Source: Ignavibacteriota bacterium (GTDB lineage: Bacteria > Bacteroidota > Ignavibacteria > UBA10030 > UBA6906). From it: DNA of 38,096 bases. Below, piece after piece: positions 11,741 through 20,668 of the stretch (the stretch's first letter is position 1; the number at the start of each line of letters is the position of its first letter). Under the pieces are notes generated by a model. That model did not search any database. It was not told the DNA's origin and worked only from the letters and a program-made list of their open reading frames with translations. Location of the stretch: assembly GCA_016218065.1 (NCBI GenBank), contig JACRFA010000086.1, positions 1 to 38,096 of the forward strand, read 5' to 3'. The position numbers were made by a program, and so were the translations under genes.

Positions 11741-11950
11741 GTGGAAACAGTGGAAGGAACATACAAGAACGGGCGCATCCACCTGTCAAAAAAGCCTCGC
11801 ACGCGCAAACCTGTCGAAGTGACGGTTGTCTTTCATACCTCGACAAGGCGCAAATTCCGTGGCTTGTCTGGAAAAGAGGAGAAGAAGTTGGTTGCACTCA
11901 AAGGGTTTGGCGGCGACGCATTGCTGGATACCGAGCAATTGTATTCATGA
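11741..11950 (+). CDS. AF2212/DUF104-like antitoxin (VapB role)
   Basis: A 69-residue basic protein: METVEGTYKNGRIHLSKKP then PVEVTVVFHTS and an alpha-helical tail (LSGKEEKKLVALKGFGGDAL). The EG.YKNG.I.L...P pattern is that of small AF2212/DUF104-type antitoxins, which pair with PIN-domain RNases. The start is GTG and probably leaderless, judged from the promoter distance. Its stop overlaps the ATG of the PIN toxin by four bases (ATGA at 11947-11950), a standard arrangement for coupled translation in TA operons. Since the downstream toxin gene is frameshifted, the antitoxin may now be unpaired or may guard related toxins elsewhere. Confidence 0.7.
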   Translation: METVEGTYKNGRIHLSKKPRTRKPVEVTVVFHTSTRRKFRGLSGKEEKKLVALKGFGGDALLDTEQLYS

Positions 11951-12422
11951 GCGCAGTCGTCATCGATTCGAACTTCCTTGTCGCCCTCATTGAGACCCGA
12001 AAGATGTTTGGCACCAGCGCGCTAGCGACATTGAGGCAGCACTCGACGAGAGAGTCACGCGACTTTTTCTTGACATCGTCATCGGCGAGTCACTCAGCGT
12101 CGTTGCTCGACGATGCGAGGAGCAAAGGCGGACACCAGATTTCGCCGCCATCATCTCCTCTGTGCAGGCTGCAATTCCAGCCTCAAGAATCCAGTGGACG
12201 GCATCGCTCGTCCGAACGCTTTACAATAAAATTCTTCAGATGATGGTCGCATACAACGGACAGTTGAACTTCAATGACTGCCTCATCGCGCTCTTCATGC
12301 AACGGAACAACTTGCAACACCTTGTAAGCTTCGATGCCGATTTCAATCTCTTGAGCACCATTCATCGTATCTCTTCACCCGAAGACCTACTACACGCAGG
12401 GTTGCCCGCACCGCGCCCGTGA
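11947..12422 (+). pseudogene. PIN-domain toxin gene (VapC-like) with a frameshift near codon 14
   Basis: The first 13-14 codons read MSAVVIDSNFLVALI, with the PIN catalytic Asp7. The frame then goes off. From about 11988 the other frame gives DPKDVWHQRASDIEAALDER and continues, through LFLDIVIGESLSVVARR, NFNDCLIALFMQRN and VSFDADFN, to the stop at 12420-12422. Joined, the two parts make a normal-sized PIN protein (about 157 residues) with the expected acidic residues. One base lost (or two gained) around ATTGAGACCC (11983-11992) explains it. It is either a recent inactivating mutation or a sequence error. The intact remainder indicates that the event is recent. Confidence 0.8.
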
Positions 12423-12567: not shown

Positions 12568-12662
12568 GATGCAGAAACAGATTCATGGATTACATTCAGA
12601 GTTCTCGAGACTCAGTTCCAGCACACGATGAAAGCATTCATCCGCAAGGGAAATGCCTACTT

Positions 12663-12893
12663 ATGGAAAACACAACCGTTACCACCGTTACCATAGAGCT
12701 TCCGACAAACCTCTCCAAAGACGAGGCACAGCTTCTTCTGGCCGTCAAGCTGTTTGAAGTTAACAAAGTCTCTCTGGGTCAAGCGGCGAAGCTCGCCGGA
12801 TTCTCCAAACGCGCCTTTATGGAATTTCTTGGGCGTTATCATATCCCCGTTGTCAATTACTCTGCTAACGAACTGCGAGACGAAATCCTCTGA
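12663..12893 (+). CDS. UPF0175 family antitoxin-like protein
   Basis: A 76-residue protein from ATG 12663 (MENTTVTTVTIELPTNLSKDEAQLL). It has the UPF0175 pattern: LLLAVKLFEVNKVSLGQAAKLAGFSKRAF, then MEFLGRYHIPVVNY and an acidic tail (SANELRDEIL). The middle part is a helix-turn-helix-like segment, so it may bind its own promoter. An in-frame ATG at 12585 would add 26 residues of poor character, and the family length (about 75-90) favours 12663. It is followed three bases later by a DUF3368 gene, the usual toxin partner of UPF0175 proteins. Confidence 0.85.
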   Translation: MENTTVTTVTIELPTNLSKDEAQLLLAVKLFEVNKVSLGQAAKLAGFSKRAFMEFLGRYHIPVVNYSANELRDEIL

Positions 12894-12896
12894 ATC

Positions 12897-13346
12897 ATGA
12901 AAGACCCGGTTGTCGCTGACAGCACATGCCTGATCGGTTTGGAGCGAATTGGTCGTCTCGATCTTCTTCCAATTGTATTTGAGAAGATTGCAATCCCGCC
13001 TGCAGTCCTGCATGAATTTGGAGTACAAGTGCCTTGGCTTACGGTCATGGCGCCCGCCAACAAATCCCTGACTGAATCGCTGCAACTGCTCGTTGATGAG
13101 GGGGAAGCGGCAGCTATTTCCCTTGCCAGCGAACTTGGATGGCGAGTCGTTCTCGATGATCGGCATGCCCGGCTGGTTGCGCTCCGGCTCAGTTTGCGAG
13201 TGATCGGAACAGTCGGGATTCTCCTTCGAGCAAAACAGGCGGCTGCGCTTCCGGCAATTCGCCCCCTCATAGACGATTTGGAGCATTCACATTTCTACAT
13301 CTCTTCCGCGCTCAAAGAAGAAGCACTGCACCTTGCTGGCGAGTAG
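12897..13346 (+). CDS. DUF3368 PIN-like nuclease, toxin partner of UPF0175
   Basis: A 149-residue protein of the DUF3368 type. Conserved acidic positions of the PIN fold are visible: Asp8 in VADSTCLI, Glu40 in AVLHEF, Glu70 in DEGEAAAI and Asp87-Asp88 in VVLDDRHAR, followed by the GTVGIL motif at 104-109. These would coordinate the metal for RNA cleavage, with no missing key residue. The ATG lies three bases after the UPF0175 stop, so the pair is one operon transcribed from 12539. It is the only complete TA pair in this window. It ends 48 bp before the converging M1 peptidase gene. RNase activity is inferred from the fold. Confidence 0.83.
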   Translation: MKDPVVADSTCLIGLERIGRLDLLPIVFEKIAIPPAVLHEFGVQVPWLTVMAPANKSLTESLQLLVDEGEAAAISLASELGWRVVLDDRHARLVALRLSLRVIGTVGILLRAKQAAALPAIRPLIDDLEHSHFYISSALKEEALHLAGE

Positions 13347-13394: not shown

Positions 13395-16070
13395 TCAGCG
13401 CAACATCAAACACTTCTTCGTCTCGACGAACGCATCGGCTCGCAGTCTGTACAGATACACTCCGCTTGCAACTCCCGATGCATTCCATTGCACGTTGTAT
13501 GTTCCTGGTTGCCTCACCTCATCCACCAGCGTCGCAACTTCGCGACCAAGAATATCAAACACCTTCAGCGTCACGCGACTGACCTCCGACCTCTGACCTC
13601 TGACTTCTGGTATCTGATATCTGATCTCTGTGGTTGGGTTGAACGGGTTGGGGTAGTTTTGTTCAAGCGCGAACATCAGAGGTATGCCCAGCATCTTCTG
13701 CTCCTCCACGGAAACAAGTCGATCATACATGGCAATGGCATCAATGCGCTGCGCCCATGTCTCCCCGATGATCTGTGAACTGCCAGGTGCAAAGCGGGCG
13801 AGATAGCCTCCTGTTTCGTCAAGTAGTCCGTACAATGTGTCTTCCGGACTGAACGCGATTGATGGTACGATGGTTGGCCAGCCGGCTTTGAAGGCAAATG
13901 TTGCAGTTCCGTTGTTGCGATCTATAGTGAAGAGACTGTCATTGTCAAACGGTTGACGTAATGACGCCCAAAGTTTCTTTGTCACTGGACTGAACGAAAG
14001 ACCCGAATAGGCTCTACCGGTGGAAGTACCGATGGCTGTGGCAGCGCCGGTTGTGAGATCAATGCGGTAGAGACTTCCGGCAGTCGTTGCCCCGAACAAT
14101 GTATCTCCCGCCGAAAACGCGATGGCTCGCATGTTCGGAACCATGAGAGTACGTTCGAACAATCCTGCGCCCGTCGCGCTCGAGATGCGATGCAAATATG
14201 TTCCAAAGCTATAGGGCGAAACTCCGTAGAGTTCTCTTGTCGTTGGCCGGATGGCAAGGCCTTGAATTGGATGTGGTCCTATCAAGCCAATGATCGTCGC
14301 GATGCCGCTGTCCCGACTCACCGTGTAGAGATTGGATGAGGCCCCGTACAACACGTCACTCATCGCCGGCGTTATGGTCGGAGCAGGCGATGCGGTTTTC
14401 AGTATCCAGTTGTTTGGATCCAATTGACCCGTGGTTGGAAGGAGCGGAACATGGACGTTGAAAGTTTGGTCAGCAAGAGTGTTCATCAAAACCACCGTGG
14501 TATCTAGACCGATTCCGGCAAGTCTGAAATCTACCGGCATTGTGAAGAATGTCGGATTCGCGGTTCCGGTTGTTTGTCGAATCCTGATCGGCACGATGTA
14601 TCCGCCATCGGTATCGGGAATGGCCTGCCAGGAATATGTGTACTGCGGATACTTCTCACCGTAGATCCACTCGTCGAAGAAGTAGCTGAGTTGAGTTCCG
14701 AAGACCGTCTCGCACACTTGCTTGAAGTTTTCGGTTGTTGCCACTCCAAACCGAAAGCGCGAATCGTTTGCGTACGCGCGAATCGACCGAAAGAACGCTG
14801 AATCGCCAAGCACATGTCTGAGCATATGAAGAACCGTCGCACCTTTGGCATACACCAGATTCCAGTTGAATAATGTGTTGAGATTCAACGTGTCCCGAAT
14901 GTAGATTGAGCCAACAGCATTTCTTGCGCTGTTCATGCAACTGGTCACATAGCTCCAGTAGGATGATGATCCATACTTTCCCTCATTGTACACGGCTGTG
15001 GAGTAAGTGGCGAAGCCTTCGTTCAGCCAAATGTTCGACCAGTTGGCACAAGTGATCATATCGCCAAACTATTGATGGGCGAGCTCGTGAGCCAAGACCC
15101 ATTCTTCGCTGAAACCAAACGATGTCATCGTTTGGTTTTCCAAGGCGCTGCCGGTCCAACCGAATTCGGCGTGCCCATACTTCTCCATGACAAAGGGGTA
15201 GAGGGAGTATTTGTCCGAGAAGATGCGAAGCATGTCAATAGTTTTCGGAAGGTCGATCTGTGCGGTCGCAAGGTGTTCGGGCAACACGTAGTTCAGAACA
15301 GGCATCGAATCGGTCGGTGTGTATTTGAACCAGTTCGTAAATTCAGCGTAGTTAGTGGTTGCTAATGAGACAAGCTCTGTGCTAATGGGATATCGCTCAG
15401 CCCACTTGTAAGTTGTTGTCCCATTCCCATTATCGATCACCGCAACGAGCTTGCCGTTCGAGCCAACTTTGTTAGAGATTCCTACTGTAACCCAGATATC
15501 GACTGAGTCGGCCTTATCCAAAGGATGGTCCTTGCAGGGCCACCAGTCCCTCGCACCGTATGGCTGGCTGAATGTGTACACCCAGGGTACACCTCCATGA
15601 CTTGAAAACCTCAAGCCGTCACCGACTGGTACACCGCGATAGTAGATATCTATGGTGACCAGTTCGCCGTTTCCATACGTTCGGTTAAGCGTGATGGTGA
15701 AGGTGGTTGGCTGCTGTGAAAAGGCAAGCCTGGTAGCTCCCACCTTTACCGAATCGACTATCATTGTATTCATCAGGTCAAGCGTAACTGATGAGAGATT
15801 GCTAACCGAACTCACGGCCTTCATCGTCACTGTGCCCCGCAAATAATTCGGGGCAGTAGTTATCGTGATGTTGAGCTTGTAGTATTTTACGTCGATGTTC
15901 GGATCGGATGCCGGCTTACTCTTTGCATTCATCAACGATGCATAACTTCGTGCCTCGCTTTTTACGAGAGCTTCCTTTTCTGTCATCATTGATTGTGGAA
16001 CAGCTTGTCCAAACGCTGCGCCAGCGACTGTGCAGAGCACTGCCAGCGTAAAGAGAAGAAGAGTTTTCAT
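13395..16070 (-). pseudogene. T9SS-exported M1 aminopeptidase with an amber codon in the zinc-binding motif
   Basis: One frame from ATG 16070 (SD GGAGG; signal peptide MKTLLLFTLAVLCTVAGAAFG) to 13395, 891 codons, is interrupted only by TAG at 15069-15071. Translation gives the M1 (gluzincin) features: substrate motif ALENQTM, HELAH at 328-332, then Gln333, the stop at 334, then FGDMITCANWSNIWLNEGF with Glu351. The spacing HEXXH-18-E is exact when the stop counts as one residue, and this position is Trp (HELAHQW) in the family, so TGG changed to TAG. A propeller-like region (VLYGASSNLYTVSRDSG) and a T9SS domain from about 807 follow. Other genes here end in TAG, so recoding is unlikely; a nonsense mutation or a sequence error is likelier. 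Confidence 0.88.
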
Positions 16071-16099
16071 TGTTGCCTCCTGCTTGTATGGTGAGAGAG

Positions 16100-16463
16100 C
16101 AAAACGGCGCCGCCTCAGAGAACGAATCTCAAACCACAAACGCCGTGTGTGAATGAACAGACTTGTTGGGCGATTCTCCCGAATCGCTTGTGTCGAGACT
16201 GTCCCGAAGGGACGCCTTCGGCGGAGTCTCGACCAACAAACCTTGAAAACAAAAAAGCGACGCTGCCGCTGCGAACGAATCTCAGACCACAAACGCCGTG
16301 TGTTAATGAACAGACTTGTTGGGCGATTCTCCCGAATCGCCAGAGTCGAGACTGTCCCGAAGGGACGCCTTCGGCGGAGTCTCGACCAACAAATCCTGAA
16401 AACAAAAAAAAGGCGCTGCCATTGAGAACGAATCTCAGACTGCAACGCCGTATGAGAAATAAC
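16100..16463. repeat. Structured leader repeat, block C
   Basis: Two long-form three-way-junction cores, C1 (16163-16239) and C2 (16316-16392), period about 153, both with the enlarged arm gtcgagact...agtctcgac containing gtccc-gaa-gggac and gcc-ttc-ggc. Linker hairpins (acggcg...gagaacgaatctc...cgccgt) lie before, between and after. The block fills the space between an orphan sorting-domain end (16488) and the M1 gene start (16070). Confidence 0.85.
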
Positions 16464-16487: not shown

Positions 16488-16690
16488 TTATCTCAAGACA
16501 AGACACTTCTTTGTCTCGACGTAGCTTCCGCTTTGCAACCGATACAAATACACTCCGCTTGCCAGACTGCCCGCATCAAACTGCACCGCCTTGAACGGCT
16601 CGACTGAGCTCGCCGAAGTCCCTGCACCCTGAACCTCATCCACCAGTCTATGACTGGTCGTTGACCAGCGTTGCGACTTCACGGGCCGAA
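16488..16690 (-). pseudogene. Orphan T9SS sorting-domain remnant
   Basis: The minus-strand frame ends [52 protein letters not shown]-like sequence, read here in parts, with a proper TAA at 16488. Upstream only GREVATLV-like coding is left (in another frame, with one extra base), and homology ends near 16690. There is no passenger and no start. It shares two insertions with the pseudogene at 10517: the 17-bp palindrome accagtctatgactggt and a 24-bp insert coding TSASSVEP. It shows that export tails persist without their passengers. Confidence 0.8.
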
Positions 16691-16752: not shown

Positions 16753-16779
16753 CACATTGATGATTTGATGAGGTTACTC

Positions 16780-17076
16780 ATGAAGCACGCTCCTCCCGTT
16801 AAGGGCACACTTGGCCGCCACGACCGTGTGTTCGAAAGCAACCGAGAGTATTACTACGCACACAAGACGGAACTCCTTCGTCGGTATCGAAACAAGTATA
16901 TCGCCATCTGGAATGAAGATGTTGTCGATGCAGATAAGGACCGACTTGCGCTTCTTCGCCGCGTACGGGCAAGCATCGGCTACGAGCCGGTGTTTGTCAA
17001 GCAAGTCACCGTGCATCCACGTATCGTACGAATTCCTTCCTACGCCTTACGTGCTCGACCAAAATCCAAAGCATGA
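16780..17076 (+). CDS. DUF5678-like small protein, partner of a retropepsin-like protease
   Basis: The 98-residue product (MKHAPPVKGTLGRHDRVFES...) has FESNREYYYAHKTELLRRYRNKYIAIWNEDVV followed by a helix and YEPVFVKQV. The order 'N..Y...H..EL...Y.NKYIAI..E.VV' and the final 'FVKQV' fit the DUF5678 type of short proteins. The start at 16780 has TGAGG six bases upstream; an ATG at 16768 is possible. It overlaps the next gene by four bases (ATGA, 17073-17076), so the two products are likely made in a fixed ratio. The tail is basic (RARPKSKA). No function is established to my knowledge. Confidence 0.65.
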   Translation: MKHAPPVKGTLGRHDRVFESNREYYYAHKTELLRRYRNKYIAIWNEDVVDADKDRLALLRRVRASIGYEPVFVKQVTVHPRIVRIPSYALRARPKSKA

Positions 17077-17447
17077 AACGATTTCCGTATCAAACGGAGA
17101 ATGCCACACAATTCCCCGTTCTCACACTCACGATCGAATCACCAAACCGTCATCCCTCTACAAAAATCATATTGAGGGTCGACACGGGCGCCGACATGAC
17201 CGTGATCCCATCCGACGTATTGAAGGAGCTCAATGCTGTTGAAGTTGCTGACGTCATGGTCGCTGACTTCGATACAGGAACATCCACGCACAAAACCTTC
17301 TCGATAAACGTCCGTCTCGGAAAGTTGCGTTTTGAAGAAGTTGAAGTCATTTCCTCCGACGGAGGTGCTGCACTTCTCGGTCTCGACATCTTGAATCTGT
17401 TGGATATCCACCTCAACGGACCCAAGAAAGTGTTGACTGTCGTTTAG
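17073..17447 (+). CDS. Retropepsin-like (clan AA) aspartic protease
   Basis: A 124-residue single-domain protein. The motif LRVDTGADMTVIP (Asp37-Thr38-Gly39-Ala40) is the catalytic D-T/S-G-A of retropepsins, and LLGLDILN at 101-108 is the matching hydrophobic-hydrophobic-G-x-D/N signature near the end of the fold. The size fits one subunit of a dimeric protease, each monomer giving one Asp. There is no signal peptide, so it should act in the cytoplasm. It is translationally coupled to the DUF5678-like gene and its stop is only two bases from the stop of the converging SBBP gene. Substrate unknown; the partner protein is the obvious candidate. No retroelement is present. Confidence 0.8.
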   Translation: MKRFPYQTENATQFPVLTLTIESPNRHPSTKIILRVDTGADMTVIPSDVLKELNAVEVADVMVADFDTGTSTHKTFSINVRLGKLRFEEVEVISSDGGAALLGLDILNLLDIHLNGPKKVLTVV

Positions 17448-17449
17448 CA

Positions 17450-17735
17450 TTACCTCAGCACCAGACACTTCTTCGTCTCGACAAATCCTCCCGCCTGCAA
17501 CCGATACAGGTACACGCCGCTTGCAAACGCCGACGCATCCCACGGCACCGAGTATGTTCCCGGTTGTTTCACCTCGTTTACCAGCGTCGCGACTTCACGC
17601 CCGAGAATATCAAACACCTTAAGTGAAACAAATCCCAAATCCGAAACCCCAAATCCCATTTGGCGATTGGAATTTGGTATTTGGTATTTGATAGTTGTTG
17701 TTGGGTTGAACGGGTTGGGGTAGTTCTGGTCAAGG
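17450..17735 (-). repeat. Sorting-domain DNA module, copy 1
   Basis: This 3' end matches those at 20784-21063 and 23081-23360 almost base for base, including silent positions and a hairpin-forming insert. The three passengers upstream are unrelated. Confidence 0.85.
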
Positions 17736-20452: not shown

Positions 20453-20479
20453 GATTGCCTCTTTTGTTGTTTGGTGAGA

Positions 20480-20668
20480 AAACAAAACGGCCCTGCCTCT
20501 CAGAACGAATCTCAAACCACAACGCCGTGTGTGAAAGAACAGATTTGTTGGGCGATTCTCTCGAATCGCTTGTGTCGAGACAGGAGTCTCGACCAACAAA
20601 CTCGGAAACAAAACGGCGATGCCCCTGAGATCGAATCTCAGAACACAACGCCATAGTTGAGAATGAAC
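20480..20668. repeat. Structured leader repeat, block D
   Basis: One three-way-junction core at 20545-20599: outer ttgtt/aacaa, arm 1 gcgattc/gaatcgc, arm 2 gtcgagac-agga-gtctcgac. Linker hairpins lie on both sides; the left-of-hairpin one (20615-20655) has a perfect ctgagat-cga-atctcag stem. The block is upstream of the SBBP gene start. Confidence 0.85.

What the first reader, a model, noticed from the sequence alone, without database searches (positions are those of the whole stretch)
16780..17447. Coupled DUF5678-like protein and cytoplasmic retropepsin: possible uncharacterised two-gene system
A 98-aa basic protein and a 124-aa retropepsin overlap by ATGA, occupy the same kind of slot as the TA modules and are driven by a TTGCTT-N17-TAGATT promoter. 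The protease has VDTGAD and LLGLDILN, no signal peptide and no retroelement around it. The arrangement suggests a protease with a cognate substrate, inhibitor or targeting partner, possibly TA-like or defensive.
Basis: partly seen in the sequence, partly recalled or inferred. Interest (0 to 1): 0.6.

Follow-up and report, generated by a model that had tools for sequence, protein, structure and literature searches.

The report
Antitoxin-like partner with retropepsin protease
Two overlapping bacterial genes encode an HIV-protease-like cutting enzyme and a small partner protein; across bacteria and archaea the pair stays together while the partner carries different DNA-binding heads, as antitoxins do, suggesting an undescribed toxin-antitoxin-like system built around a protease.

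Summary
A 98-aa DUF5678 protein (16780-17076) overlaps a 124-aa cytoplasmic retropepsin (17073-17447) by ATGA. Only the promoter claim fails. The genome holds three such pairs, 3/3 coupled. Relatives occur in Chloroflexi, several archaeal lineages, Desulfobacterota-like genomes, WOR-3 and rarely in the window's own phylum. All 17 closest relatives found by the protease have DUF5678 immediately upstream. By a strict rule, 63 of 95 DUF5678 loci have a retropepsin immediately downstream. The catalytic Asp is kept in every complete protease.

The main new result is the partner's architecture. The same DUF5678 core carries, by lineage, a ribbon-helix-helix, Phd/YefM, winged-helix or archaeal-histone domain, or no DNA-binding domain (as here). 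These N-terminal types need at least 10 changes on the protease tree. One close protease has a plain Phd/YefM antitoxin as its overlapping partner. Partner and protease co-diverge (r=0.74), even among paralogues of one genome.

This is antitoxin grammar with a retropepsin in the toxin slot. No held paper mentions both "retropepsin" and "antitoxin". Toxicity, binding and proteolysis are untested, and an ImmA/ImmR-like protease-repressor switch is a serious rival. No defence-island, phage or plasmid association was found.

The parts
16780..17076 (+). 98-aa partner protein: short basic N-terminal tail (residues 1-about 30), DUF5678 core (residues 31-67 by Pfam; modelled helix-helix-strand-strand-helix-strand), C-terminal tail PRIVRIPSYAL
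   Evidence: paralogues A2; model pLDDT 85
17073..17447 (+). 124-aa cytoplasmic retropepsin (clan AA), catalytic D37 in VDTGAD, second signature LLGLDILN
   Evidence: fold of relative L011 matches Rickettsia APRc 5c9f, HIV, DDI1; profile matches HTLV/FIV/DDI1
17073..17076 (+). ATGA stop/start overlap, consistent with translational coupling
   Evidence: sequence; paralogues overlap by 1 and 4 nt
16770..16773 (+). GAGG, Shine-Dalgarno-like, 6 nt before the partner's ATG
   Evidence: sequence; inference
   Evidence: 0 sites

Best explanation
A two-gene module that works like a type II toxin-antitoxin or regulator-effector pair. The first gene makes a DUF5678 protein that binds the co-translated retropepsin through the DUF5678 core and/or its conserved C-terminal tail and keeps it inactive, for example by occupying the active-site cleft or the dimer interface. 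In many lineages the same protein also represses the operon through an attached DNA-binding head (RHH, Phd/YefM, winged helix or histone fold). When the partner is lost or titrated, the retropepsin dimerises and cleaves cytoplasmic targets. Shown: the conserved coupled pair, the intact catalytic Asp, head swapping on a common core, co-divergence, and patchy multi-copy distribution. Inferred: binding, inhibition, autoregulation, harm by the free protease, and the target. In the window's copy there is no DNA-binding head, so only the protease-control role is proposed there. The probability that the free protease is truly toxic, making it a TA system in the strict sense, is about 0.35.
For: Three of three pairs in the own genome. 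All 17 protease-anchored relatives have DUF5678 directly upstream, across archaea, Chloroflexi, WOR-3 and Syntrophobacter-like genomes. 46 of 67 DUF5678 loci in one set and 17 of 28 in another have a retropepsin directly downstream, with starts mostly from 4 nt overlapping to 10 nt apart. N-terminal heads by Pfam: archaeal histone 49.9 bits and PSK_trans_fac 29.6 bits, both over cut-off; PhdYefM, RHH_5 and RHH_1 below cut-off on pair members; over 60 partners PhdYefM 6, RHH_1 4, RHH_5 4, MarR/AbiEi 2, histone 1 at E up to 0.01. A close retropepsin (L116) overlaps a plain Phd/YefM antitoxin, 48 bits over cut-off 29.8. Ten head changes on the protease tree, minimum possible 5. Partner and protease distances correlate r=0.74 (n=66, 0/2000 permutations) and r=0.72 among 8 paralogous pairs of one genome (7/5000). 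Of 18 strongest proteases in 401 genomes, 16 have an overlapping small upstream gene, one has a degraded one and one is alone. Complete orphan partners exist: L035, L052, L079, L106. D-[TSC]-G in 63/66 proteases; the other three are DPG or truncated ORFs.
Against: No toxicity, binding or cleavage data. The window's own partner, the Bacteroidota-like ones and the Desulfobacterota-like ones have no DNA-binding head, so autoregulation is not general. Many other small archaeal and Chloroflexi retropepsins have no such partner, so a cytosolic retropepsin is not inherently toxic. Relatives are absent from the held plasmids, phages and viral contigs, whereas classical TA modules are common there. Neighbours are ordinary metabolic genes with only 2 PIN genes in 70. 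DUF5678 has no known fold or function, and about a third of DUF5678 hits have no retropepsin next to them.
Confidence: 0.5

Rival explanations
1. Protease-repressor switch, as in ImmA/ImmR (COG2856-Xre): the DUF5678 protein is a DNA-binding repressor and the substrate of the retropepsin. When the protease is activated it cleaves the partner, relieving repression of the operon or of other genes. The cell is not poisoned.
For: DNA-binding heads on many partners; catalytic Asp strictly kept; precedent of a co-encoded protease that inactivates its own repressor (Makarova 2009, PMC2701414); the partner's C-terminal tail is conserved although it models as poorly ordered (pLDDT about 62-68), as a cleavage or docking site might be.
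Against: The heads are optional (none here), while DUF5678 itself is the constant part. A common DNA target is hard to reconcile with four unrelated heads. Complete orphan partners without protease exist.
Confidence: 0.25
2. House-keeping regulated proteolysis: DUF5678 is a substrate adaptor, chaperone or activator of a small retropepsin that processes or removes particular cytoplasmic proteins, comparable to Pseudomonas RimB (with RimAK), with no addiction or self-harm.
For: Known bacterial retropepsins act in regulation: a retropepsin-like protease regulating ribosome modification (PMC11957791) and osmotic-stress enzymes (PMC12239564) (abstracts only). Short head-less DUF5678 partners predominate in the Desulfobacterota-like set. 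Neighbourhoods are metabolic.
Against: Patchy, multi-copy distribution (3 copies here but 1 of 296 phylum genomes with this protease type; 11 DUF5678 copies in one Litorilinea MAG) and recurrent fusion to antitoxin-type heads are unusual for a housekeeping adaptor.
Confidence: 0.2
3. Chance neighbours, or a degenerate retroelement remnant.
For: Both genes are small; the domain scores in the window are only a little above cut-off.
Against: Pairing conserved across two domains of life with the same order and overlap, co-divergence of the two proteins, and no retroelement genes seen nearby.
Confidence: 0.02

Closest known systems
Bacterial retropepsins of clan AA (Rickettsia APRc, Pseudomonas RimB and osmotic-stress retropepsins; NCBIfam TIGR03698/TIGR02281)
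   Same: Single-domain pepsin-half fold with DTG and LLG signatures; APRc 5c9f is the best PDB match of the modelled relative
   Different: Below the NCBIfam cut-offs (34.1 vs 57.35 bits for TIGR03698); co-transcribed with and matched to a DUF5678 partner; no secretion signal seen
Type II toxin-antitoxin modules (VapBC, Phd/Doc, YefM/YoeB, MazEF)
   Same: Small two-gene operon, regulator first, 4-nt overlaps, RHH/Phd/AbiEi-type heads, multi-copy and patchy
   Different: Effector is an aspartic protease rather than RNase, kinase or Fic; toxicity untested; no plasmid or phage members found
COG2856-Xre protease/repressor pairs (ImmA/ImmR)
   Same: Protease co-encoded with a DNA-binding partner; discussed among TA-like systems in PMC2701414
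   Different: Aspartic retropepsin instead of zinc protease; different partner fold; DNA-binding head optional and variable
PADLOC candidates PDC-M08 and PDC-M52 (unvalidated two-gene phage-defence candidates)
   Same: Their B component weakly matches the protease (E 6e-6 and 0.0067)
   Different: No partner of 18 matches a PDC-M08 or PDC-M52 model

Membership tests
Retropepsin / clan AA aspartic peptidase | Hydrophobic-D-[TS]-G active-site motif | tested here: met
   VDTGAD at 36-41; DTGAD invariant in A3; D-[TSC]-G in 63/66 pairs
Retropepsin / clan AA aspartic peptidase | Second signature (hydrophobic-hydrophobic-G) and retropepsin fold | tested here: met
   LLGLDILN; RVP, gag-asp and Asp_protease_2 over cut-off; fold of relative L011 matches APRc, HIV, DDI1 with E 4e-6 to 1e-4
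Retropepsin / clan AA aspartic peptidase | Homodimer and proteolytic activity | not testable with these tools
   needs biochemistry
DUF5678 (PF18929) | Score over Pfam gathering cut-off | tested here: met
   26.1 vs 23.2 bits; 52 of 60 partners match at E up to 0.01
Type II toxin-antitoxin system | Two small co-transcribed, usually overlapping genes conserved as a pair | tested here: met
   (gene order and overlap; transcription itself not tested)
Type II toxin-antitoxin system | Antitoxin with a DNA-binding domain that autoregulates | tested here: inconclusive
   RHH, Phd, wHTH and histone heads in many relatives; none in the window's copy; autoregulation untested
Type II toxin-antitoxin system | Effector toxic alone and neutralised by direct binding of the partner | not testable with these tools
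   no experiment; no complex prediction with usable interface scores
Type II toxin-antitoxin system | Patchy distribution, presence on mobile elements | tested here: inconclusive
   patchy and multi-copy; none found in plasmids, phages or viral contigs by the searches run
ImmA/ImmR (COG2856-Xre) | HEXXH zinc protease with Xre HTH partner | tested here: not met
   aspartic DTG protease; DUF5678 partner
PADLOC PDC-M08 / PDC-M52 | Both components match | tested here: not met
   protease weakly matches the B models; partners match neither PDC-M08 nor PDC-M52

The most novel reading that the evidence does not exclude
A family of toxin-antitoxin systems spanning bacteria and archaea whose toxin is a retroviral-type aspartic protease, controlled by a DUF5678 antitoxin that acquires interchangeable DNA-binding heads, including an archaeal histone.
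Probability: 0.33. Interest if true: 0.85.

Novelty: new variant of a known kind. Interest (0 to 1): 0.62.

Why it matters
Retropepsins are best known from retroviruses, and few prokaryotic ones have an assigned role. A coupled partner that wears antitoxin heads gives a first concrete hypothesis for a large group of prokaryotic retropepsins and for DUF5678, a family found by name in only one, unrelated, paper of the held library. If confirmed it would add a protease to a list of toxins dominated by nucleases, kinases and related enzymes. The pair is small, and toxicity, rescue and an Asp mutant can be tested directly in laboratory strains.

Tried and rejected
Viral contigs with A2 and A3, and plasmids/phages by tblastn: no relatives. 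A4 gave no stretch conserved enough for a scan. sigma-70 promoter and terminator scan: nothing. DUF5678 hits in 517-594-aa frames of the Chloroflexi-like set were excluded as probable unrelated domains of larger enzymes. DUF5678 fold search: no PDB match with E at or under 0.001 and best VIA-align Z 3.3, so no fold assignment; profile search of PDB sequences likewise empty. A resemblance of low-ranked Foldseek hits to ubiquitin-like domains (DDI1 is a UBL-retropepsin) was not pursued: E above 1. The read-through model of L011 (partner and protease in frame, two TGA read as Gly) gave pTM 0.72 and pLDDT 80, but no coordinates or PAE were available and the relative's protease C-terminus is frameshifted, so no interface is claimed. 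Shared C-terminal motif (v.SPRL) between DUF5678 tails and the alternative partners of L113-L116: suggestive (motif in 4/4, shuffle frequency 0.5-1.6% each) but the window's own tail reads IPSYAL, so it is only a lead. The AbrB/AF2212-like look of the L113-L115 partners is by eye; Pfam did not confirm it.

Full report
What is in the window. The first, 16780-17076, encodes 98 aa and scores over the Pfam cut-off for DUF5678. The second, 17073-17447, encodes 124 aa and scores over the cut-off for three retropepsin-type Pfam models. They share ATGA. The stated promoter hexamers exist but match sigma-70 poorly and the scan finds none.

Own genome. The genome (5.17 Mb, 319 contigs) holds three proteases of this kind and three DUF5678 genes, at the same three places and in the same order with 1- or 4-nt overlaps. 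Proteases are about 40% identical to the window's and partners 43-47%, so these are old paralogous cassettes. In 296 genomes of the phylum only this genome has this protease type by single-protein search. DUF5678 occurs in three other genomes of that set, each with a more divergent aspartic protease directly downstream.

Breadth. A scan of species genomes with the three proteases gave 17 loci from archaea (Thaumarchaeota/Nitrososphaeria, Brockarchaeota, Thermoproteales, Baldrarchaeota), Chloroflexi, WOR-3 and Syntrophobacter/Deltaproteobacteria. All 17 have a DUF5678-type ORF immediately upstream on the same strand (in L014 and L017 it is shortened or frameshifted, and in L020 and L025 cut by the contig end). 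From the other side, a strict automatic rule found a retropepsin motif in the next gene for 46 of 67 DUF5678 loci from the window's phylum, Chloroflexi-like and Nitrososphaeria-like sets and six named genomes. It found 17 of 28 in the set drawn from the phylum of the Syntrophobacter genome, where three more (L180, L187, L189) are visible by eye. Retropepsins of this type were seen in well under 1 in 1000 genes of the same genomes (rough estimate), so chance adjacency is excluded.

The partner is modular. The DUF5678 core is preceded by an RHH domain, a Phd/YefM domain, a MarR/AbiEi-type winged helix, an archaeal histone fold (49.9 bits; NCBIfam archaeal histone 77.8 bits) or no DNA-binding domain. 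The window, its paralogues and the Desulfobacterota-like partners belong to the last class. On a quick protease tree of 65 rows the head type needs 10 changes where 5 is the minimum. The window's three pairs form one supported group (99) inside a set that mixes RHH, Phd, histone and no head. Head labels were assigned by eye from N-terminal sequences together with Pfam, and 11 rows were left unlabelled.

Other partners in the same slot. Among the 18 strongest proteases in two 200-genome sets, 12 follow a DUF5678 gene. Three follow a small unassigned gene (L113-L115), and one (L116) overlaps a plain Phd/YefM antitoxin with no DUF5678, 48 bits over the cut-off of 29.8. One follows a degraded RHH remnant (L145) and one stands alone (L146). 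Weaker-scoring small retropepsins, mostly archaeal, are usually solitary, so the rule applies to this subfamily and to the other retropepsins that sit beside DUF5678, not to all retropepsins.

Co-divergence. Distances of partner C-terminal regions and proteases correlate at r=0.74 over 66 pairs (0 of 2000 permutations). Within one Litorilinea genome, where species history cannot explain it, eight paralogous pairs give r=0.72 (7 of 5000). The two genes travel and diverge as matched pairs.

Catalysis. D-[TSC]-G is present in 63 of 66 HMM-chosen proteases; the exceptions are one DPG and two truncated ORFs.

Structure. A read-through model of partner and protease of relative L011 (29-row alignment) has pLDDT 80 and pTM 0.72. 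Its protease part matches Rickettsia APRc, retroviral proteases and DDI1. The window's partner models as two helices, a beta hairpin, a helix and a strand (pLDDT 85) with a poorly ordered conserved C-terminal tail. No solved relative was found.

Mechanism. The simplest reading is a dedicated antitoxin-like inhibitor with a retropepsin effector. The partner's constant part (core and tail) would hold the protease inactive and the optional head would repress the operon. Pairing, modularity, co-divergence and the intact active site are shown. Inhibition, autoregulation and toxicity are inferred. The closest mechanistic rival is the ImmA/ImmR arrangement, where the co-encoded protease destroys its repressor (PMC2701414). 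A non-toxic regulated-proteolysis role comparable to RimB (PMC11957791) is the third.

Known or not. Only one held paper contains the word DUF5678, and it is unrelated. No held paper contains both retropepsin and antitoxin. The 2009 TA survey discusses a zinc protease but no aspartic protease. PADLOC's unvalidated candidates PDC-M08 and PDC-M52 contain proteins weakly similar to the protease, but no partner matches those two systems. The library holds open-licence PubMed Central papers only and no bioRxiv, so prior description elsewhere is not excluded.

Against a defence role. No relatives were found in the phage, plasmid or viral collections searched, and the neighbours of 15 loci are mainly metabolic, with two PIN genes in 70. 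In the window itself a VapBC-like UPF0175/DUF3368 module lies about 3.5 kb away.

Noticed in passing
window 12585-13346 (+): UPF0175 gene followed by a DUF3368 PIN-type gene, a VapBC-like toxin-antitoxin module; both match PADLOC candidate PDC-S70 models.
   Followed up: partly
window 11947-12422 (+): A PIN-like protein split over two overlapping frames (weak PIN match in the second), apparently a decayed toxin gene.
   Followed up: partly
window 13395-16445 (-): An M1-aminopeptidase-like gene is interrupted just after HELAHQ: the upstream ORF ends at 15069 and the rest resumes as a separate ORF at 15059, so it is a pseudogene or a sequencing error.
   Followed up: no
window 16488-16682 (-) and 17450-17600 (-): An orphan T9SS C-terminal sorting-domain remnant lies on one side of the pair and the 3' end of a full T9SS gene on the other, so the pair sits between two related stretches (65% over 116 nt; 92% over 26 nt).
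   Followed up: partly
window 16101-16406 and 20467-20648: A 153-nt repeat unit in tandem (92% identical) with further copies about 4.3 kb away in front of another T9SS gene.
   Followed up: no
L021:690-1208 (+): Archaeal histone fold fused to DUF5678 in a Baldrarchaeota MAG, directly upstream of a retropepsin.
   Followed up: yes
L113:1275-1505, L114:1275-1502, L115:1287-1493 (+): Small beta-rich-looking genes overlapping close retropepsins in Chloroflexi-like genomes, with a C-terminal tail (SPRLA..DA..F-like) shared with the Phd/YefM partner of L116; no Pfam assignment.
   Followed up: partly
L057, L058, L059, L063, L065 and similar: DUF5678 matches lie inside 517-594-aa frames in Chloroflexi-like genomes, where the ends seen look like HD-type enzymes; either a distant use of the domain or false matches.
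   Followed up: no
L146-L170: Many solitary 115-150-aa retropepsins in Nitrososphaeria/Thermoproteota-like genomes with no small partner gene upstream; function unknown.
   Followed up: partly
alignment A3 members: Four of 17 proteases match PADLOC's PEPT_D model (aspartyl protease in the type III CRISPR operon of Sulfolobales), best E 5e-7.
   Followed up: no
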